A DNA stretch of 64,000 nt from Rhodococcus sp. Leaf247 (GTDB taxonomy: Bacteria > Actinomycetota > Actinomycetes > Mycobacteriales > Mycobacteriaceae): assembly GCF_001426185.1 (NCBI RefSeq), contig NZ_LMRP01000003.1, positions 310,001-374,000 on the forward strand, given 5' to 3'. This document shows positions 1,456 through 64,000 of this stretch, in pieces. Below the pieces are notes generated by a model that made no database searches, had not been told where the DNA came from, and saw only the letters and a program-made list of their open reading frames with translations. A program made the position numbers and the translations under genes. How positions within the stretch are numbered: position 1 is the stretch's first letter; every line of letters starts with the position of its first letter.

Positions 1456-2420
1456 CCACGAGGCACCTGTTGTCGACGATGGATCTGAGCCGCAGCGATG
1501 CGACCGACATCCTCGACGAGGCGGAGCGGTTCGAACAGGCACTGCTGGGACGCGACGTCCGCAAGCTGCCGACGTTGCGCGGCAAGACGGTGATGACCGT
1601 CTTCTACGAGAACTCGACACGCACACGCGTGTCCTTCGAGGTCGCGGGCAAGTGGATGAGTGCCGACGTCATCAACGTCAGCGCGAGCAGTTCGTCCGCG
1701 TCCAAGGGCGAATCCCTGCGGGACACGGCGTTGACGCTGCGCGCGGCGGGTGCGGATGCTCTGATCGTCCGCCATCCCGCGTCGGGTGCGGCGCATCGCA
1801 TCGCGCAATGGACCGCGCTTCCCGACGGTTCCGGACCGGCCGTGATCAACGCCGGTGACGGCACCCACGAACATCCGACGCAAGCACTGCTGGACGCGTT
1901 GACATTGCGTCAGCGCCTCGGCGGGATCGAGGGCCGTCGCATCGCGATCGTCGGCGACGTGCTGCACAGTCGCGTCGCACGGTCCAACGCCTTCCTGTTG
2001 GCGACGCTGGGCGCGGACGTCATCGTGGTCGCGCCGAGGACTCTGCTGCCGGTCGGCATCGAGACGTGGCCCGTGACGGTCGCGTCGTCACTCGACGCCG
2101 AACTGCCCGCCCTCGACGCCGTCATGATGCTGCGTGTCCAGGCCGAGCGGATGAACGGCGGTTTCTTCCCGTCGGCCCGCGAGTACTCCATCGGCTACGG
2201 GCTGTCCCAGAAGCGGTTCGACATGCTCCCGAGTCACGCGGTGGTGCTGCACCCGGGTCCGATGCTGCGCGGAATGGAGATCGGTTTCTCCGTCGCCGAC
2301 GCGCCGGAAACCGCTGTCCTCCAACAAGTCCAGAATGGAGTCCACGTGCGCATGGCCGTGCTGTTCCGTCTCCTCATCGGGTCCGACGTCTCGGGCACGA
2401 CCGCATCGGGGGTGTCGTGA
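1452..2420 (+). CDS. pyrB: Aspartate carbamoyltransferase catalytic chain
   Basis: Joins carbamoyl phosphate and aspartate to N-carbamoyl-aspartate, the committed step of pyrimidine synthesis. The 322-residue length is normal. Visible motifs: the carbamoyl-phosphate loop [13 protein letters not shown] near residues 50-62, the second-domain [10 protein letters not shown] near 141-150, and the C-terminal [11 protein letters not shown]. No pyrI regulatory-chain gene is nearby, as expected for actinobacteria, where PyrB often works next to PyrC. Start GTG 1452 overlaps pyrR by 4 nt; the stop shares one base with the pyrC ATG (TGATG). Confidence 0.97.
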
Positions 2421-3736
2421 TGAGCGGCTCCGTGATCATCCGGGACGTGCGACCGTACGGCCAGGGCGAGCCGGTCGACGTGCTCATCACCGACGGAATC
2501 GTCGACGCCATCGGTGCCGACCTGTCCGCACCCGACGACGCCGAGGTGGTCGAGGGCGGTGGGGGAGTTCTCCTGCCGGGCTTCGTCGACCTGCATACGC
2601 ACGTCCGTGAACCGGGACGCGAGGACACCGAGACGATCGAGACCGGTTCCGCGGCAGCAGCACTCGGCGGATACACCGCCATCTTCGCGATGGCGAACAC
2701 GTCGCCGGTAGCGGATTCGGTCGTCGTCACCGACCACGTGTGGCGACGCGGACAGGAAGTCGGCCTCGTCGACGTGCACCCCGTCGGTGCCGTGACGGTA
2801 GGTCTGAAAGGCACCGCCCTCGCGGAGATGGCGACCATGAACGCCGGGGTCGGCGCCGTGCGGATGTTCTCCGACGACGGGCACTGCGTCGCGGATCCGC
2901 TGCTCATGCGGCGTGCGCTCGAGTACTCGGCCGGCCTTGGCGTGCTCATCGCGCAGCATGCGGAGGAACCTCGACTCACCGAAGGCGCTGTCGCACACGA
3001 GGGTCCGACTGCCGCGCGGCTGGGGCTGGCCGGGTGGCCTCGTTCGGCGGAGGAATCCATCGTCGCGCGCGACGCCATCCTGGCTCGTGATGCGCGAGCG
3101 CGCGTCCACATCTGCCACGCGTCCACCGCCGGCACCGTCGAACTTCTCGACTGGGCGAAGAAGCAGGGAATCTCGATCACCGCCGAGGTCACCCCGCATC
3201 ACCTGTTCCTCGACGACTCCCGCCTCGAGACGTACGACGCGGTGAACAAGGTGAACCCCCCACTGCGCGAGAGCAGCGATGTCGACGCGCTGCGCAGGGC
3301 CTTGGCCTCGGGCGTCGTCGACTGCGTCGCCACGGACCATGCGCCGCATGCGGAGCAGGACAAGTGCTGCGAATTCTCGCAGGCGCGTCCGGGCATGCTC
3401 GGACTCGAGACGGCGTTGTCCATCGTGGCATCGACGATGGTCGAGACCGGTCTGCTCGACTGGCGCGGCGTCGCGAGGGTCATGAGCGAGCGTCCCGCGG
3501 AGATCGTGGGACTGACCGATCAGGGCCGGCCCATCGCCGTGGGGGAGCCGGCCAACCTGACCGTCGTCGATCCCGACGTCCGGTGGACGGTCGACTCGCG
3601 CGCCCTGGCGTCGTTGTCGTCGAACACCCCGTTCGAGGCACTCGAACTGCCTGCCAAGGTCACCGCAACCCTGTTGCGTGGCCGCATCACCAGCCGCGAC
3701 GGTGTCGCCGCTGCTCCTTCAGGAGGCGCGAACTAG
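2420..3736 (+). CDS. pyrC: Dihydroorotase
   Basis: Zinc amidohydrolase that cyclises carbamoyl-aspartate to dihydroorotate. 438 residues, class I (long) type. The metal-binding [10 protein letters not shown] lies at residues ~56-65, with HICHAST in mid-protein, EVTPHHLFL following, and VATDHAPH near residue 304 supplying the catalytic Asp. ATG 2420 is preferred over GTG 2417 because it gives the overlapping stop-start TGATG with pyrB; both are in frame. The next gene starts directly after the TAG stop. Confidence 0.96.
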
Positions 3737-4249
3737 ATGGACAGAGTGTTGCTGGTCGCCGGATTCCTGGTGTTCTGGGCCGCGATGATCGCCCTCATCC
3801 TGTGGGGGTGGAGAAACCGCCAGAAGCGTCAGAGCGACGCGATCGGTGAGCTTCCGAGCGCACCGGACGCCCTCGGCGACGTTCGCGTGGCGTCCTGCAC
3901 CGGCCTCTACGTCGGCTCGACGCTGGCTCCGAGCTGGCAGAACCGCATCGCTGTCGGTGACATCGGCCATCGCGCCACCGGAACCCTCACGCGGTACGAG
4001 ACGGGCATCCTCCTCGAACGTCACGGGGAGACCGACATCTGGATGCCGCAGGACGCCCTGCGGGCGATACGCACCGAGCGCGGGCTGGCCGGGAAGGTCA
4101 TGACCAAGGACGGCCTGCTGGTCGTGCGATGGGAACTGCCCACCGGCACCGAGATCGACACCGGCTTCCGAGCCGACGACAAATCCGTCTACCCCGACTG
4201 GGTCGACGACACCACTTTCAGCAGCGAAGACGAGAAGGAGACCGCGTGA
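3737..4249 (+). CDS. Conserved membrane-anchored protein of the pyr operon (Rv1382-like), unknown function
   Basis: 170 residues: one N-terminal hydrophobic helix (residues ~4-22, LLVAGFLVFWAAMIALILWG), a short basic stretch (RNRQKRQ), then a soluble, beta-rich domain without a motif I recognise. The charge pattern suggests the C-terminal domain is cytoplasmic. The position between pyrC and carA matches the conserved small 'export or membrane protein' gene of mycobacteria. ATG follows the pyrC stop with zero gap, and its own stop overlaps carA by 4 nt, so it is translated with the pathway enzymes. No function is established; a role in anchoring or modulating the enzymes would be speculation. 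Confidence 0.88.
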   Translation: MDRVLLVAGFLVFWAAMIALILWGWRNRQKRQSDAIGELPSAPDALGDVRVASCTGLYVGSTLAPSWQNRIAVGDIGHRATGTLTRYETGILLERHGETDIWMPQDALRAIRTERGLAGKVMTKDGLLVVRWELPTGTEIDTGFRADDKSVYPDWVDDTTFSSEDEKETA

Positions 4250-57499: not shown

Positions 57500-57843
57500 C
57501 CGATACCGACAGCAGCGCAGCGGCGCCCGATTCCGTCATCGAGGACCTCGAGGAGGCCATGCGTGACGTCGTCGACCCCGAACTGGGCATCAACGTCGTC
57601 GACCTGGGTCTCGTCTACGGGATCTCCATCGACGACGCGGCAGTGGTGACACTGGACATGACGCTCACGTCCGCGGCGTGCCCGCTGACCGACGTGATCG
57701 AGGATCAGAGCCGCACGGCCCTGGTGCGGAGCGGGTTGGCCGAGGAACTCAAGATCAACTGGGTCTGGATGCCGCCGTGGGGTCCGGACAAGATCACCGA
57801 CGACGGACGCGAACAGCTTCGCGCCCTCGGATTCACGGTCTGA
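57496..57843 (+). CDS. sufT: SufT-like DUF59 (MIP18) Fe-S maturation protein
   Basis: Helper for Fe-S protein maturation (Rv1466 family). 115 residues. Family motifs DPELGINVVDLGLVYGI and MTLTSAACPLTDVI with the reactive Cys, then WMPPWGPDKITDDGREQLRA. ATG 57496 has GGAGGA upstream and overlaps sufU. Its last 11 bp overlap the end of the convergent GNAT gene. Confidence 0.93.
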
Positions 57844-59017
57844 CCGTCTTGCTGAAGATGCGGTACGTCCTGCTCGGGTCCACCGGGTAGGACGCCCGCA
57901 CCGAGCGGAACCAGCCGCCGTCAGCGAGTACCGGTGCAGCTTCGATGGAGTCGTATCCGCGGTCGTGGATGCGCTGGAACAGTTCGAAGATCAGTAACGC
58001 CGACGTGCCCTTGTCCGGGCACTCGGGATCGACGAACATCATGTCCAGACGCACGTGCGAGCGGTGCTTGCGACCGCCGGGCCCACGCCACCGCGCGATG
58101 GTGTGAAGATCTCGCAGGACGCCGAAGCGTGAGCGCACCGCCCCGAGCGCAGCCTTGTTGACGTCTGGAATGCCCATGACGAAACCGACCACCGTGCCGT
58201 CGAGCTCGGCAAAGAGCACGATCTCGCGGTCGAGGATCGGTCGCATCGTCGCGACCAGCTCCTGGATCTCGTCGGGTTCGACCGGGGTGAATCCCCAGAA
58301 CGAGCTGAACGCCGAGTTGTAGAGCACGCGCAGCTTCTCGACGTCCTCGTCGAAGGTGGCGTCGTTCATCGGTCGGATGGTCACCGACGACCGAGCTTTC
58401 CACCGCTGGCCCATCGCGTACTTGCGTTCGAACGGCTTCGTCTGGACCAAGCTGTGCGGATCGTCGTGATAGAAGCTGTGGAACTCCTTGATGCTCGTCA
58501 TGCCCCAGCTCTCGACGAGCTCGGCGTAGTACGGCGGGTTGTGCGGCATGCCGACCAACGGCGGAATGTCGTTGCCGTGCACCAGTATTCCCGCGCTCCA
58601 CAACAGCGACGGGCTCATGGGTCCCACCAGTGTGGTCAGCGACTTCGCAGTGGCCCACTCGGCTGCCGCATCGAGCAGCGCGTGCGCCGCCTCGACATCG
58701 TCGAGGCATTCGAAGTACCCGAAGTACGCCGTGGGTTCGTCGTAGTGAGCGATGAACACCAGGTCGGCGATGGCGGCGATGCGCCCCACCAGTGTCGAGC
58801 CGCGGTAGGCGAGGAAAGCCTGGCTGGTCATGCGACCGCTCGTCTTCTCCGACGGCTTCCGCAACATCGTGCCGACGTCCGCGATGTCGCCGGGGATCCA
58901 GTTGCGATCCGACGCGTACACGACGAAGGGGACCTTCGAGAACGCTGCCCAGTCCCGTCGAGAACGGACGGGCGTCACGGTGACCGTGCCGACGGCCGTG
59001 TCGGTCTTCGTTGTCAT
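57833..59017 (-). CDS. GNAT-fold acyltransferase-like protein (YghO-type), fourth gene of lipid-like cluster
   Basis: 394 residues. Two halves: an N-terminal segment PFVVYASDRNWIPGD with TLVGRIAAIADLVF and YFGYFECLDDVEAAHALLDA, then GPMSPSLLWSAGILVHGND and MPHNPPYYAELVESWGM; the C-terminal half has a second acetyltransferase-like fold (ELDGTVVGFVMGIPDVN, DMMFVDPECPDKGTSALLIF). This resembles a widespread, poorly characterised GNAT group that some bacteria use for lipid amine acylation; that link is from memory and unproven here. ATG 59017 overlaps the PSD-like stop by 4 nt. Ends in an 11-bp overlap with sufT. Confidence 0.75.
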   Translation of the reverse strand: MTTKTDTAVGTVTVTPVRSRRDWAAFSKVPFVVYASDRNWIPGDIADVGTMLRKPSEKTSGRMTSQAFLAYRGSTLVGRIAAIADLVFIAHYDEPTAYFGYFECLDDVEAAHALLDAAAEWATAKSLTTLVGPMSPSLLWSAGILVHGNDIPPLVGMPHNPPYYAELVESWGMTSIKEFHSFYHDDPHSLVQTKPFERKYAMGQRWKARSSVTIRPMNDATFDEDVEKLRVLYNSAFSSFWGFTPVEPDEIQELVATMRPILDREIVLFAELDGTVVGFVMGIPDVNKAALGAVRSRFGVLRDLHTIARWRGPGGRKHRSHVRLDMMFVDPECPDKGTSALLIFELFQRIHDRGYDSIEAAPVLADGGWFRSVRASYPVDPSRTYRIFSKTVRP

Positions 59018-59766
59018 GACACTCCTCCGAGTACCTGTTCGTGTGCCTGGACGCGAGCGCGGGCCACCACCGACTCCCCGGCCCACACGTACTGGCCGGG
59101 TCGGACCAGAATCGCGTCGTCGCCGTCGAGGAGGTCGTCGGGCAGGAACACGTCGCACTGGGAGCCGAATCGGATGAGGCCGTACTGCTCGCCGCGTTCG
59201 AGTCGGTCGTCGACGTCGGTGTGGGCGACGATCCGGTCGACCCACAGGTCTGCGATCTGAGTGACGAAGACCGTGGAACCGGCGTCGTGTCGGATGCCGA
59301 TGGTGAGGCGTTCGTTGGTCAGCAAGTAGTCGCACCCCTCGTCGTACGGGGTGCGGTGCAACACCAGATTGGCCGTCATGCGGGCCATCGACCTGTTGAA
59401 CGGGGCGGCGCCGCGATGTTCACGGAGCACGACTGTCCCTCCGACGGGGGCGCGGTTGCGGTGGACGGAGTGCTCCGTCATGTACGTCCCGATCAGCCAC
59501 CCGCTGGCATCGGACTCGACGCCCGCGTACTCGGACAACCGTATGGAGCGTCGCTTCTTCACGGCGATGGGCAGTTCGCCGCGCTCGACCCGTTTGACGT
59601 ACGTGACGTAGCCGTCGGCCGCCGACACGATCGACGACGGGTCTGCCGGCGGTGTGCGGTCGGGGTCGCGCAGGAACGCCGCGGTCCGCCAATACGAGTA
59701 GCCGCCGACGAGGAGCGCGGCGGCGGCCGATCCGAGGACCCCCACTGCGGGTAGTCGGGATGTCAC
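59014..59766 (-). CDS. Phosphatidylserine decarboxylase-like protein
   Basis: 250 residues. An N-terminal hydrophobic segment (residues ~7-23) may anchor it. The catalytic set of PSDs is kept: Asp51 in VSAADGYVTYV, His102 in EHSVHRNRAPVGG, and a Gly201-Ser202 cleavage site in LIRFGSQCDVFLP, where self-cleavage would make the pyruvoyl group. The GSQ form differs from GSS/GST of classical PSDs and is closer to the short class, so the substrate could be another phospho-serine lipid. GTG 59766 and the stop both overlap their neighbours by 4 nt. Confidence 0.82.
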   Translation of the reverse strand: MTSRLPAVGVLGSAAAALLVGGYSYWRTAAFLRDPDRTPPADPSSIVSAADGYVTYVKRVERGELPIAVKKRRSIRLSEYAGVESDASGWLIGTYMTEHSVHRNRAPVGGTVVLREHRGAAPFNRSMARMTANLVLHRTPYDEGCDYLLTNERLTIGIRHDAGSTVFVTQIADLWVDRIVAHTDVDDRLERGEQYGLIRFGSQCDVFLPDDLLDGDDAILVRPGQYVWAGESVVARARVQAHEQVLGGVS

Positions 59767-60023
59767 GAGGGGCTCTTTCCGTGATCGATCCGTTCGACGA
59801 GCGCGATGAACGCGTCGTACAGCCGTGTGCGGAGGACGCTGTCGAGTGCGACCGCTGCGAGTCCGAGTGTGCCCAGGGCGACGTAGTAGAGAAGGCCCAG
59901 GGTGAACTCGACGAAGTCGCCGGCGAACACGCGTACGCGGTAGCGCAGGCCCGACTCGAGGAAGACCGGCTGAGGGGGCACCCGGCCGGCGCGTGCCGGC
60001 CGGGGAGTGGGGCGCACCGTCAC
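59763..60023 (-). CDS. Small membrane protein (86 residues) in the lipid-like cluster
   Basis: A Pro/Arg-rich N-terminus (~25 residues), then FLESGLRYRVRVFAGDFVEF, a hydrophobic helix LGLLYYVALGTLGLAAVAL (residues ~45-63), and a short amphipathic end RTRLYDAFIALVERIDHGKS. No family recognised. GTG 60023 overlaps the reductase stop (GTGA) and its stop overlaps the PSD-like start by 4 nt; GTG 60017 is an alternative start. Its tight coupling suggests it is a subunit or membrane anchor for the neighbours. Confidence 0.7.
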   Translation of the reverse strand: MTVRPTPRPARAGRVPPQPVFLESGLRYRVRVFAGDFVEFTLGLLYYVALGTLGLAAVALDSVLRTRLYDAFIALVERIDHGKSPS

Positions 60024-61378
60024 GCAGTGACCAGCCGCGTCCGGGTGCCGGCGTGACGGAACTGGATCTTCGACAGGTAGAGCGCGAACAGCGCGTCGTG
60101 ATCCCACGTCGATCCGTCGAAGCCGGCCGGCATACGCGACGGGGCGTTGGACCGCCGGATGAGGTCGTTGACGTCGGAGCCCAACAGAGATGCGGTCTTC
60201 TCGACGGGAATCTTGCTGTCGACGATCGCCTTGAACTCCGTCCACGGCACCAGCTTCAGTCCGAGTGCATTCGCGATCACCGCATTGCTGTACTCGACGG
60301 GATTCGACGGCACCAGGTGGTGCATCGTGTCGTCGCCGAGTGCGTTGTCGGTGAGCACGCGGGCGAGAACGTCGACCGGGGCGTAGTTCATGCCCGGTCC
60401 GTCCCACATGACTCCGACGGCGTTCGCGAGTTCGATGGCGCGCCAGAAGCTGTACACGCGACCCGGGTCCTTACCCACCGTCGTGCTGCCCAGGACGTAG
60501 GGGGACTGCGCCAGGGTCACGGACGCGACGCCGTCGCGTGCGAGCCACCCCAGGAGTTCACCGTTGATCCACTTCATCTGGCAGTAGCCGGAGTACCACC
60601 AGGAATCGGGTCGCTGGAAGTCCTCGGGGCTGGTGTAGATGAAGGCACCGATCGACCCCATGTACGTCAGATGCTTGCGACGGTCCTCGAGAGTGAACTG
60701 GACGACGCGCAGGAGGCTCTCGAACCAGTCCTGGCGCAGCTCGACGTAGGAGGAGTCGTAGTCGGTCGAGCTGGCCGAGTTGAACACCTGGTCGACGGTT
60801 CCGCGGAGTTCGAGGTAGGTGTCCTCGTCCAGACCGAACCGCGACCGCGTCGGCACCGCCTCGAGGACGACGATCTTCGAGCGGTCGATCGCCGTGATCG
60901 AGTAGTTCTCGACCGTCTCGTAGAACCGCTCCACCGCGGTGGAGTCGCCCGCGGACCGCACGCCGGCGTACACGCGTGTCACCTCGGGACGCGTCGACAG
61001 TTCGGCGACGAGGTGAGCGCCGACGAATCCGTTCGCGCCGAAGACGAGGGCGACCTCCGCAGCGGGGGCGGCCATCTGCTGGACGAGCTCCACCGTGGCC
61101 GGGTCGACGACCGGCCGGAGAAGCTCGGGGGAGCCGGCGCTGAGCGCGGCGATGTCCGCGTACTTCCGGGAGAACAGCAGCGACGGTGCGTCGGCCGTCA
61201 GCGGTACGACAGGGCTGACGAGGTGGCCGTCGTTGGCAACGGTGGTGAACGTGTAGTCGTCGAACAATGTGACTCCCCCGAGTAGTGGTGCATGTGCGAT
61301 ACGACGCACGATTTCTTCTACGACGACAGTAGGAGCGTCGTTCGGGAGACCAACCGCGTTCGGCGTTGTGAGCCACAC
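60020..61378 (-). CDS. SDR / thioester-reductase-like oxidoreductase, first gene of lipid-like cluster
   Basis: 452 residues. Residues ~1-108 match nothing I recognise. From ~109 comes an extended SDR fold: VALVFGANGFVGAHLVAEL (Gly114, Gly117, Gly120), the mid-strand FNSASSTDYDS, LTYMGSIGAFIYTS and the catalytic Tyr265/Lys269 in SGYCQMKWINGELL. The C-terminal third resembles thioester/fatty-acyl reductase substrate domains (PNMYAPVDV-like GMNYAPVDVLARVL). Likely reduces an acyl thioester or a related carbonyl with NADPH (inference). GTG 61378 is the chosen start; support for it is moderate. Lies 62 bp downstream of ku. Confidence 0.75.
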   Translation of the reverse strand: MWLTTPNAVGLPNDAPTVVVEEIVRRIAHAPLLGGVTLFDDYTFTTVANDGHLVSPVVPLTADAPSLLFSRKYADIAALSAGSPELLRPVVDPATVELVQQMAAPAAEVALVFGANGFVGAHLVAELSTRPEVTRVYAGVRSAGDSTAVERFYETVENYSITAIDRSKIVVLEAVPTRSRFGLDEDTYLELRGTVDQVFNSASSTDYDSSYVELRQDWFESLLRVVQFTLEDRRKHLTYMGSIGAFIYTSPEDFQRPDSWWYSGYCQMKWINGELLGWLARDGVASVTLAQSPYVLGSTTVGKDPGRVYSFWRAIELANAVGVMWDGPGMNYAPVDVLARVLTDNALGDDTMHHLVPSNPVEYSNAVIANALGLKLVPWTEFKAIVDSKIPVEKTASLLGSDVNDLIRRSNAPSRMPAGFDGSTWDHDALFALYLSKIQFRHAGTRTRLVTA

Positions 61379-61439
61379 GGATTCAGGGCGCCGCGTTTGT
61401 GAAGGTCGTGCTCGCGTGCACGTCGGGGCGGAATCGTCG

Positions 61440-62414
61440 TCAGGCTCCCTTGCGGTGCTGCTCCTGCGAGTCGGCCTTCTTCGCCGCGGTCTTCTTGGCG
61501 GGGGCTTTCTTGGCGGGAGCCTTCTTCGCGGCCGCTTTCTTCGCCGGAGCCTTCTTGGCGGGTGCCTTCTCGGCCGGAGCCTTCGACGACTCGCCGCCCG
61601 AGGTGTCGCTGCGACCCTTGCCGGAGCGACCGGCCGCTTCGACGCTGCGTTGCAGCGCGGCGACGAGGTCGACCACCTCGGCGTCCTCGCCGGAGTCCGC
61701 GTCGTCGTCGCGTTCGGCGTGGATGACCTTCTCGCCACCGTTCTCGATCGCCTCGTCGAGCACCTTGCGGAGCTCGATCTGGTAGTCGTCGGTGTACTCG
61801 GACGGGTCGAAGTCACCGGACATGCTCTCGACGAGCGCACCGGCCATCTTCAGCTCCTGGGGCCGGGGAGCGGTGACGTCGTCCAGGGACGAGAACTCGG
61901 CCGCGCGGACCTCGTCGGGCCACAGCAATGTCTGGATCATGAGCACGTTCTCGTGCACGCGCAGCGCAGCCAATCGCGTCTTCTGACGGAGAGTGAAGTG
62001 CACCAGCGCCGTGCGATCGGTCTCGGCCAGCGTTTCCCGCAGCAGGACGTACGCCTTCGGCGAGGTGGAGTCCGGTTCGAGGTAGTAGCTCTTGTCGAAG
62101 AGGATGGGGTCGATCTGCTCGGTGGGCACGAACTCGAGTACCGGAATCTCGTGCTTCTCCGCTGCGGGGAGCGTGGAGAAGTCCTGATCGGTCAGGACGA
62201 CCCGGTCACCGTCCGGCGACTCGTAGGCCTTGTCGATGTCCGCGAACTGGACCGACTCGCCGCAGACCGAGCACTTGCGGTCGTACTTGATGCGCCCGCC
62301 GTCCTTGCCGTGGACCTGGTGGAATTTGATGTCGTGGTCCTCGGTGGCGGTGTACACCTTGACCGGCACGTTCACCAGGCCGAAGGCGATGGCGCCTTTC
62401 CAGATCGATCGCAT
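61440..62414 (-). CDS. ku: Non-homologous end-joining protein Ku
   Basis: Homodimeric DNA-end-binding ring that recruits LigD. 324 residues. Core start RSIWKGAIAFGLVNVPVKVY, the CxxC-containing YDRKCSVCGESV (a feature of some bacterial Ku), and VLEFVPTEQIDPILFDKSYY. The last ~50 residues are a Lys/Ala/Pro tail of PAKKA-type repeats, found in many actinobacterial Ku proteins and thought to aid DNA binding. ATG 62414. No ligD in the window. Confidence 0.95.
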   Translation of the reverse strand: MRSIWKGAIAFGLVNVPVKVYTATEDHDIKFHQVHGKDGGRIKYDRKCSVCGESVQFADIDKAYESPDGDRVVLTDQDFSTLPAAEKHEIPVLEFVPTEQIDPILFDKSYYLEPDSTSPKAYVLLRETLAETDRTALVHFTLRQKTRLAALRVHENVLMIQTLLWPDEVRAAEFSSLDDVTAPRPQELKMAGALVESMSGDFDPSEYTDDYQIELRKVLDEAIENGGEKVIHAERDDDADSGEDAEVVDLVAALQRSVEAAGRSGKGRSDTSGGESSKAPAEKAPAKKAPAKKAAAKKAPAKKAPAKKTAAKKADSQEQHRKGA

Positions 62415-62457: not shown

Positions 62458-63594
62458 TCACCCGGATTCCGATGCCGCGCCGGGAACAGCGGACATCACG
62501 GTGCGCCGGACCGCCCCCAGGATGACTCGTCTGTCCGCGTGGTCGATGCGCGAGAACACCGTCAGCATGGCGCGCGACATACCGGTCACGTCGTCGTCGG
62601 ACGACAGGTAGGCGCGTTGCGACGCGTCGCTCATGTCGAAGAACGTGTCGAAGAACGTCGCGATCGCGCCCGGGGCAAGATCCAACAGCGCATCGGCGCC
62701 GATGGACCTCAGCCGATTCACGGTGCGGGACCGAACCGTGTCGACGCGGCCTCCGGTCAGGACTGCGCCGGTGATGGCGTCGGCGCGCCGGAGCGACGCC
62801 GCCACGCTGTATCCGGTGGCCGTGTGAAGAGCGGGGCTCCGCGTGCCCGTGGTCAGCACCCCCGCGACGGTGGTTGCCGGCGGACGCATCGCGAAGCGGA
62901 CCCGTTCGACCGGTTCGTCGCCCGTGGGGGACAGCCCGCGGCCCTCCAGACGAACCGTGAGTCGACGCGACAGCTCGCTGAACGGCAGGCCCGGTCGGCC
63001 GACCAGACAGGTTTCCTCGAGCAGTACCGAGCCGTCGCCGAGCGGGACCGCATAGAGGAAGGACGGGGTCGCACCGACCACCGAACCGTTGTCCTGACGC
63101 CAGTCCATGACCAACGTGGGCGCATCGTCCATGGTCCGGGCCGCGACGTCGGCATCGACGACGATCCCGTAGGCGGTCTGTTCGGGTATCCCCGGTCCGA
63201 CGGCCGAACCGCGGGCGTCGACGACTGTTCCGGCCGTCACGACGGTCCCGTCGGCGGTGGTCACCGATCGCGAGTCGACGGCCGCCGCGTGCGCCGCGAC
63301 GACCGTCACCCCGTCGAGGGTCAGGCAATCCTGGAGCCGCGAGGTGTCCAGGACCGTGTAGCTACGACCCACCACGTGACGTCGCTCACCGATCACGACG
63401 GGGGAGTCGACTGTGCTCGCGCGGACGGACGCGGGTACCCAGCCGGGCACCTCGTCCGCCCACGTCCCGTAGGTGTTGATCCACCGCCGATCGGGATGGG
63501 GATCCATCAGGGTCACCGACGCCCCCGCTCGCGCGCAGCGATGAGCCGCAGCACGGCCGGACGGGCCGGCCCCGAGGACCAGGACGTCGGTCAG
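62458..63594 (-). CDS. crtL: Lycopene beta-cyclase-like FAD/NAD(P)-binding protein
   Basis: Closes the ends of lycopene to beta-rings for carotenoid pigments. About 378 residues. Dinucleotide motif VLVLGAGPSGRAAAHRC at residues 4-20, the cyclase motif WINTYGTWADEVPGW (residues 38-52), FLYAVPLGDGSVLLEETCLV, and ATGYSVAASL. Similar to the CrtL-b type of Rhodococcus. No ATG/GTG/TTG lies at the natural start; a CTG at 63594 sits in CTGA overlapping the upstream SDR stop, with GGGG nearby. GTG 63651 is an alternative that adds 19 residues. Confidence 0.8.
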   Translation of the reverse strand: MTDVLVLGAGPSGRAAAHRCARAGASVTLMDPHPDRRWINTYGTWADEVPGWVPASVRASTVDSPVVIGERRHVVGRSYTVLDTSRLQDCLTLDGVTVVAAHAAAVDSRSVTTADGTVVTAGTVVDARGSAVGPGIPEQTAYGIVVDADVAARTMDDAPTLVMDWRQDNGSVVGATPSFLYAVPLGDGSVLLEETCLVGRPGLPFSELSRRLTVRLEGRGLSPTGDEPVERVRFAMRPPATTVAGVLTTGTRSPALHTATGYSVAASLRRADAITGAVLTGGRVDTVRSRTVNRLRSIGADALLDLAPGAIATFFDTFFDMSDASQRAYLSSDDDVTGMSRAMLTVFSRIDHADRRVILGAVRRTVMSAVPGAASESG

Positions 63595-64000
63595 AGGGAC
63601 CCCGTCGCCAACAGTCCGCCGTCGACGCGCACCGTCTCTCCGGTGATCCACGACGATGCGTCGGACACCAGGAAGCCGACGAGTTCGGCGACATCCTCGG
63701 GAGTTCCGAGCCGCTTCATGGGGTAGCCCGCGGCCGCGGCCTCCTCGCCCCCGGCGACGAGCGCCTCGGCGAACTTGGTCTTGACGACGCCGGGAGCCAC
63801 CGCGTTGACCCGGATCGACGGTCCGAGCTGCCAGGCGAGCTCCTCCGTGAGGCGGATAAGTGCCGCCTTCGACGCACCGTATGCCGCGATGACACCGGTC
63901 GACCGGATGCCCGCGACGCTGGCGAGGTTGACGACGGCGCCGCCGTGTTCGCCCATCCACGCTCGGTGCGCCTGCTGGATGTAGGCGAGTGACGCGACGA
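63591..64000 (-). CDS. Short-chain dehydrogenase/reductase, C-terminal part (5' end outside window)
   Basis: At least 136 codons, running off the right edge. Contains the SDR catalytic core: VNLASVAGIRSTGV, Tyr-x3-Lys in AAYGASKAALIRLTEEL, and NAVAPGVVKTKFAEALV, then SSWITGETVRVDGG. The Gly-rich cofactor loop lies outside the window. An ATG at 63956 is internal, as coding continues upstream without a stop. Substrate unknown; overlap with the cyclase gene suggests the two are co-transcribed. Confidence 0.85.
   Translation of the reverse strand, partial: VASLAYIQQAHRAWMGEHGGAVVNLASVAGIRSTGVIAAYGASKAALIRLTEELAWQLGPSIRVNAVAPGVVKTKFAEALVAGGEEAAAAGYPMKRLGTPEDVAELVGFLVSDASSWITGETVRVDGGLLATGSL

What the first reader, a model, noticed from the sequence alone, without database searches (positions are those of the whole stretch)
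57833..61378. Four-gene, fully coupled cluster: SDR/thioester reductase-like, 86-residue membrane protein, PSD-like, GNAT-like
Seen: the genes at 60020-61378, 59763-60023, 59014-59766 and 57833-59017 (-) follow each other with exactly 4-nt stop/start overlaps at all three junctions. The mix is unusual: a reductase acting on thioesters or lipids, a decarboxylase of phosphoserine lipids, a tiny membrane protein and a GNAT acyltransferase. Known: PSDs make ethanolamine lipids and GNAT-fold enzymes can acylate lipid amines (for example in bacterial ceramide synthesis, from memory). Inference: the set makes or remodels an amine-headed or N-acylated lipid. I do not recall a described pathway with this layout, and it is not part of the mycobacterial synteny seen in the rest of the window.
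Basis: partly seen in the sequence, partly recalled or inferred. Interest (0 to 1): 0.75.

Follow-up and report, generated by a model that had tools for sequence, protein, structure and literature searches.

The report
Mobile operon for an N-acylated lipid
Four tightly linked genes, carried together between unrelated bacteria, look like a small assembly line for an unknown fatty lipid, and one of the enzymes is related to the bacterial enzyme that finishes ceramides although the usual first enzyme of ceramide synthesis was not found here.

Summary
The cluster is real, with 4-nt overlaps at all three junctions; only gene A's start is off (better TTG 61267). It is a conserved, rare, mobile unit. 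A (lone thioester-reductase-type SDR) and C (a distinct phosphatidylserine-decarboxylase subfamily) occur in the same 30 of 401 sampled family genomes. A+C+D occur together in 25 of 30 named loci: Rhodococcus/Rhodococcoides, Williamsia, Nocardia vinacea, a Prochloron scaffold. B, a one-helix protein, goes with them. Other carriers add an MmpL exporter or, in Prochloron, a fatty-acid hydroxylase. D is a full-length homologue of tandem-GNAT proteins that elsewhere lie beside serine-palmitoyltransferase-like and CerR-like genes, i.e. of the bacterial ceramide-synthase kind (Caulobacter CerS itself was not compared). The window genome gave no SPT-like match. Best reading: an envelope N-acylated aminolipid whose amine comes through C and whose second chain comes through A. 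Not excluded: a ceramide-like lipid made without serine palmitoyltransferase. The product is unproven. My paper searches listed no description of this set.

The parts
60020..61267 (-).
   Evidence: PF07993 2e-21, TIGR01746 1.6e-30 but below its cut-off; the 7 PDB sequences at E<=0.001 are all thioester-reductase or CAR chains; start:
61273..61279 (-). GGGGGAG ribosome-binding-like box of gene A
   Evidence: similar G-rich boxes in the 12 relatives printed
60584..60586 (-). Tyr228 of A, of the Tyr-x-x-x-Lys pair
   Evidence: invariant in alignment A4, 12 rows; aligned with GYAQSKW of MxaA; catalytic role recalled
60572..60574 (-). Lys232 of A, of the same pair
   Evidence: invariant in A4, 12 rows
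59763..60023 (-). Gene B, 86 aa, one predicted membrane helix, no known family; C-terminal Asp conserved
59014..59766 (-). Gene C, 250 aa, phosphatidylserine-decarboxylase-family protein, own subfamily
   Evidence: PF02666 9e-36; model matches E. coli PSD and PsiD; second copy beside the psd at G000:C2
59161..59163 (-). Ser202 of C, in FGSQCD; pyruvoyl-forming Gly-Ser cleavage site of the PSD family (role recalled)
   Evidence: G201 and S202 invariant in 22 of 22 rows
59461..59463 (-). His102 of C, with Asp51 (59614-59616) the presumed triad partners of Ser202 (role recalled)
   Evidence: both invariant in 22 of 22 rows
57833..59017 (-). Gene D, 394 aa, tandem-GNAT N-acyltransferase related to proteins beside SPT-like genes

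Best explanation
The cluster is a horizontally moving operon that makes an N-acylated, amine-derived lipid of the cell envelope. Most likely course (all chemistry inferred): C matures to a pyruvoyl enzyme and decarboxylates a serine-bearing lipid or lipid precursor to an ethanolamine-type primary amine; D, an N-acyltransferase of the ceramide-synthase kind, puts a long acyl chain on that amine; A reduces an acyl thioester to a fatty aldehyde or alcohol that becomes another chain of the same lipid; B is a small membrane partner that holds or regulates the enzymes. Where present, MmpL exports the product, or a fatty-acid hydroxylase modifies it. Shown: gene order, linkage, shared distribution, families, conserved catalytic positions, kinship of D. 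Inferred: substrates, order of steps, product, role of B.
For: A and C in the same 30 of 401 family genomes; D in the same 24 of 37 genomes of the genus; A+C+D in 25 of 30 named loci. 4-nt coupling, also in relatives. D aligns over its length with GNATs beside SPT-like genes: 33% identity, 6e-48, with the Streptomyces plasmid protein; 32%, 1e-46, with the Rubrobacter one; and with 13 cyanobacterial proteins of which 9 have the SPT-like gene in the stretch read. Partner genes: MmpL in fascians-type, Williamsia and Nocardia cassettes, FA hydroxylase in Prochloron. C keeps the PSD-family catalytic positions. A falls with thioester reductases.
Against: No substrate or product is known. Kribbella and L096 have A-B-C without D anywhere at E<=1e-5, and three named loci plus one cyanobacterium (L153) have A alone, so the parts are separable. 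The SPT-like neighbour scores best with the BioF model and stays below every SPT cut-off, and the CerR-like one scores best with HpnA, also below cut-off, so the loci that define D's kin are themselves inferred. No dedicated acyl carrier or ligase lies in the unit. The window's cassette lacks the MmpL gene, and its genome has no MmpL over 35% identical to it. C scores below all PSD equivalog cut-offs.
Confidence: 0.45

Rival explanations
1. N-acyl-phosphatidylethanolamine route: C is a true second PS decarboxylase, D N-acylates the resulting PE, and A only supplies or salvages fatty aldehyde or alcohol.
For: C is a PSD-family protein with the catalytic positions kept; D's kin presumably acylate a primary amine on a lipid (inference); PS and PE supply exists (psd with a phosphatidyltransferase-like neighbour).
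Against: The housekeeping Psd makes a second one unnecessary; A is unexplained although it is the part never missing in my A-seeded scan and shares C's distribution; C has two subfamily insertions; Kribbella keeps A-B-C without D.
Confidence: 0.25
2. SPT-independent ceramide route: A makes a fatty aldehyde; C decarboxylates serine, phosphoserine or phosphatidylserine on its pyruvoyl group and the carbanion adds to the aldehyde instead of a proton, giving a sphinganine-type base directly; D N-acylates it to a ceramide-like lipid. It would be the reverse of sphingosine-phosphate lyase chemistry, driven by loss of CO2.
For: It gives every enzyme a job, replaces SPT plus ketone reductase by A plus C, and fits D's kinship, the lack of an SPT-like match in the window genome and in 20 of 24 carriers, the FA hydroxylase next to D in Prochloron and next to the D homologue in Roseomonas, and A-B-C cassettes without D.
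Against: I know of no pyruvoyl enzyme that forms a C-C bond (recall; the one search, listed nothing, which is no proof). Nothing in the sequence shows an aldehyde site in C; the model is under pLDDT 50 exactly in the larger insertion. No ceramide in Rhodococcus turned up in the listing or in the passages of PMC10383236.
Confidence: 0.1
3. A secreted small amide or other natural product rather than a structural lipid: C decarboxylates a free amino acid, A releases an aldehyde, D acylates.
For: PsiD and a fungal arginine decarboxylase, which act on free amino acids, are among the structural matches of C; an A relative lies beside ATP-grasp, PLP-decarboxylase and semialdehyde-dehydrogenase genes (L100); distribution is patchy (2 of 396 phylum genomes).
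Against: No adenylation or carrier-protein gene lies in the unit; C and B have a membrane helix; partners are MmpL and FA hydroxylase.
Confidence: 0.1

Closest known systems
Bacterial ceramide synthesis (spt, cerR, cerS/bCerS; Caulobacter CC_1162-1165 and CC_1154; PMC11324152, PMC11087976, passages)
   Same: D is kin to GNATs beside SPT-like and epimerase genes, and to the Roseomonas protein whose neighbours resemble those of CC_1154; an N-acylated lipid is the likely outcome
   Different: No SPT-like match in the window genome and no CerR-type gene in the cassette; instead a PSD-type enzyme and a thioester-reductase-type enzyme; cassette D proteins form their own clade
Phosphatidylserine decarboxylase, short bacterial type
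   Same: Family, D/H/S positions, Gly-Ser cleavage motif, N-terminal membrane helix
   Different: Two conserved insertions, including N-[RK]-S-x-A-R, absent from the genome's own Psd; below all equivalog cut-offs
Thioester reductase domains of NRPS, PKS and carboxylic acid reductases (MxaA 4u7w, CAR 5msc)
   Same: Sequence profile and the Tyr-x-x-x-Lys-Trp signature
   Different: Stand-alone, no carrier or adenylation domain; 106.6 bits against a TIGR01746 cut-off of 213.35
MmpL lipid exporters
   Same: Fifth gene of fascians-type, Williamsia and Nocardia cassettes (PF03176; 275 bits to the MmpL3 model)
   Different: Far below the MmpL3 cut-off of 1400; absent from the window's cassette

Membership tests
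Phosphatidylserine decarboxylase family (C) | PF02666 over the gathering score | tested here: met
   123.8 bits, cut-off 22
Phosphatidylserine decarboxylase family (C) | Asp/His/Ser positions and Gly-Ser self-cleavage motif | tested here: met
   D51, H102, G201-S202 invariant in 22 of 22 rows; roles recalled
Phosphatidylserine decarboxylase family (C) | Score over an NCBIfam equivalog cut-off for phosphatidylserine decarboxylase | tested here: not met
   best 114.2 bits against 252; none of 12 models over its cut-off
Phosphatidylserine decarboxylase family (C) | Decarboxylation of phosphatidylserine | not testable with these tools
   needs an assay or complementation
Bacterial ceramide synthase kind (D) | Full-length homology to the GNAT beside SPT-like genes | tested here: met
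   E 6e-48 and 1e-46 to two plasmid SPT-GNAT-epimerase loci; E 2e-32 to 3e-45 to the 13 cyanobacterial proteins
Bacterial ceramide synthase kind (D) | Homology to the characterised Caulobacter CerS (CC_1154) itself | not tested
   sequence not at hand; only neighbour resemblance through Roseomonas (27%, 1e-28)
Bacterial ceramide synthase kind (D) | SPT in the same genome | tested here: not met
   no match at E<=1e-20 in G000; 20 of 24 carriers none
Bacterial ceramide synthase kind (D) | N-acylation of a long-chain base | not testable with these tools
   needs an assay
Thioester reductase domain (A) | Profile similarity and Tyr-x-x-x-Lys | tested here: met
   7 of 7 PDB sequences at E<=0.001; pair invariant in 12 rows
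Thioester reductase domain (A) | TIGR01746 curated cut-off | tested here: not met
   106.6 against 213.35 bits
Thioester reductase domain (A) | Reduction of a carrier- or CoA-bound acyl thioester | not testable with these tools
   needs an assay

The most novel reading that the evidence does not exclude
The operon is a ceramide-like lipid pathway that does without serine palmitoyltransferase: a thioester reductase makes a fatty aldehyde, a pyruvoyl decarboxylase of the PSD family joins it to decarboxylated serine (free, phospho- or phosphatidylserine), and a ceramide-synthase relative N-acylates the base, with MmpL export in mycolic-acid bacteria.
Probability: 0.1. Interest if true: 0.92.

Novelty: new variant of a known kind. 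Interest (0 to 1): 0.62.

Why it matters
It would be a new membrane-lipid pathway shared by mycolic-acid bacteria and a cyanobacterial symbiont, with a ceramide-synthase-type enzyme working without the enzyme that normally makes its substrate. It would extend the PSD family to a new task and give the cassette's MmpL proteins a candidate cargo. It can be tested with four or five genes in E. coli and one lipidomic run.

Tried and rejected
Considered and set aside. (1) Generic GNAT for D: rejected because full-length homologues sit beside SPT-like genes. (2) C as a mere duplicate of the housekeeping Psd: less likely because a psd lies elsewhere in the genome and C forms its own subfamily. (3) Plasmid- or virus-borne cassette: A gave no match among 72,556 plasmids at E<=1e-20; C gave 6 Paracoccus records at about 35% identity; viral contigs gave none. 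(4) Promoter: no sigma-70-type site in 57600-61600 (other promoter types not covered). (5) Wide spread in the phylum: 2 of 396 sampled genomes, both of the window's genus; 1 of 38 in the group around Kribbella, itself. (6) A solved D relative by sequence: no convincing one. (7) An SPT-type enzyme as the hidden partner: the alpha-oxoamine synthase matches in the genus are commoner in non-carriers (11 of 13) than in carriers (4 of 24). (8) Literature: searches (9 of 10 used). Three returned no paper; no listed title names this set. I saw listings with starts of abstracts, and passages only of PMC11324152, PMC11087976 and PMC10383236. (9) The insertion of C could not be placed (pLDDT under 50 at 124-134 and 138-149).
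Full report
What is there. The minus strand holds four genes, A 60020-61267, B 59763-60023, C 59014-59766 and D 57833-59017, joined by 4-nt overlaps. Upstream on the same strand is a Ku-like gene (61440-62414, identified by recall); downstream the suf operon converges on D (suf names recalled). The genome has 4.53 Mb in 5 contigs. The nearest carriers are G036 and G022 (D 84 and 83%; A 86% to G036); the contig length of G036 equals that of Rhodococcus sp. UNC23MFCrub1.1, so the organism is very likely a Rhodococcus/Rhodococcoides.

Conservation as a unit. In 37 genomes of the genus (own included), 24 have D, and the same 24 have A and C. The named scan for A gave 30 loci: 25 with A, C and D, 2 with A and C, 3 with A alone. 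Over 18 loci that I chose, the identity matrices correlate at 0.92 (A-C), 0.98 (A-D) and 0.93 (C-D); without a housekeeping control this partly reflects species kinship.

Mobility. In the window lineage the cassette is between Ku and SufT; in R. trifolii elsewhere; in fascians-type genomes it lies near ribosomal genes (rplK-rplA on one side, rplJ-rplL on the other where the stretch reaches; names recalled) with a fifth MmpL gene; in Williamsia beside a two-component system or a large reductase, also with MmpL; in Nocardia vinacea with MmpL. The fascians-type A is 69-74% identical to the Williamsia and Nocardia copies but 49% to the window's, so the genus appears to have obtained it at least twice. 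A Prochloron didemni scaffold carries A-B-C-D followed by a fatty-acid hydroxylase. In its phylum, 2 of 244 sampled genomes have A at E<=1e-40, and the other one (L153) has it without C and D in the 18 kb read.

What each protein is. A: PF07993; all 7 PDB sequences at E<=0.001 are thioester-reductase or carboxylic-acid-reductase chains; GYCQMKW aligns with GYAQSKW of MxaA. C: PSD family; D51, H102 and G201-S202 invariant in 22 of 22 rows, one of them the genome's housekeeping Psd, 32% identical. The predicted model (pLDDT 80) matches E. coli PSD and, next, the tryptophan decarboxylase PsiD. The 21 cassette-type rows share insertions that the housekeeping Psd lacks, including N-[RK]-S-x-A-R. 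D: Pfam sees only a weak GNAT; the predicted model (pLDDT 81) is a tandem GNAT.

D is kin to ceramide-synthase-type proteins. The Prochloron genome has a second D homologue in a locus with a Rieske protein, an alpha-oxoamine synthase and an epimerase. The synthase's best PDB match is serine palmitoyltransferase (2.5e-39), but its best NCBIfam model is BioF and it is below every SPT cut-off; the epimerase scores best with HpnA, also below cut-off. I therefore write SPT-like and CerR-like. In that phylum 20 of 244 sampled genomes have a D homologue at E<=1e-40. I read 13 of the 20 (one locus each): 9 have the SPT-like gene in the stretch read, 6 the CerR-like one, 4 neither. Plasmids of a Streptomyces and of Rubrobacter carry the order synthase, GNAT, epimerase. 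On a Roseomonas plasmid the homologue follows LptF/LptG and a sterol-desaturase-family gene and precedes a nucleotidyltransferase; in Caulobacter CC_1154 (cerS) lies between the LptF2/LptG2 genes and the nucleotidyltransferase-like CC_1153 (PMC11324152, passages). [quoted passage not shown] I had no Caulobacter sequence, so the kinship rests on these neighbours. In the tree the 14 cassette D proteins used form one clade (100/100) on a long branch, and the program warns that long branches meet there.

What is missing. The window genome has no SPT-like match at E<=1e-20; 20 of 24 carriers have none; 4 carriers have weak ones (about 30% identity), as do 11 of 13 non-carriers. In the 4 matches that I opened (L143-L146, two from carriers) the gene adjoins a polyketide ketoreductase/carrier gene. 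So D must acylate something not made by an SPT, or by one not recognised. C is the only obvious amine-maker in the unit.

Mechanism. Shown: linkage, shared distribution, families, conserved positions. Inferred: C yields an ethanolamine-type amine from a serine-bearing lipid or precursor, D N-acylates it, A turns an acyl thioester into an aldehyde or alcohol for a further chain, B is a membrane partner. The conservative rival is N-acyl-PE. The bold one is decarboxylative joining of a fatty aldehyde to serine, giving a sphingoid base without SPT. Kribbella (A-B-C, no D in the genome at E<=1e-5) and L096 (another GNAT between A and B, also no D) fit the idea that A+B+C make an amine that different acyltransferases, or none, can finish. 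Against a narrow reading: A homologues also occur without C and D (L100, L102, L106, L153), and L100 lies in a natural-product-like cluster.

Verdict. A conserved, rare and mobile lipid-type operon for which my searches listed no description (open-licence papers only). I file D as related to bacterial ceramide synthases, C as a PSD-family member below the equivalog level, and A as thioester-reductase-like below the TIGR01746 cut-off. The product is unknown.

Noticed in passing
L143 (G010) 1489-4037, and L144-L146: An alpha-oxoamine synthase gene overlaps a polyketide ketoreductase/carrier-protein gene, with an MmpL-like frame behind it in L143. SPT-like matches in the genus are commoner in cassette non-carriers (11 of 13) than carriers (4 of 24), Fisher p 9e-5 without correction for kinship; 4 of the 19 matches were opened.
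   Followed up: partly
L126 155-4998 (Prochloron): A sphingolipid-like locus with a Rieske-domain protein, SPT-like and CerR-like genes and a second D homologue, apart from the A-B-C-D cassette.
   Followed up: partly
L100 5621-14790 (Streptosporangiaceae MAG): A relative of A upstream of ATP-grasp, MFS, HMGL-like, PLP-decarboxylase, RimK/LysX-like and semialdehyde-dehydrogenase genes: an unread natural-product-like cluster.
   Followed up: no
L153 7802-9953: A cyanobacterial A relative beside an iron-containing redox enzyme of the haem-oxygenase-like fold (PF14518).
   Followed up: no
L037 7078-10186 and L038 7095-10320: Very distant D-like proteins (about 23% identity) in a conserved set with a 148-aa and a 146-aa protein, a 526-566 aa protein that looks like an adenylating enzyme, and a further conserved gene, in two families of the order.
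   Followed up: no
L102 3051-4250 and L106 8153-9216 (Paraburkholderia): A relatives of A without C or D, one seemingly broken, in contigs with transposase-like frames.
   Followed up: no
L096 8004-11171: A-B-C cassette in a contig labelled Rhodobacteraceae MAG with a different GNAT (330 aa) between A and B.
   Followed up: partly
window 62458-63956: Beyond Ku on the same strand, an oxidoreductase-like frame (lycopene-cyclase-like by recall) and an SDR-like frame, in the same order in the nearest carriers.
   Followed up: no
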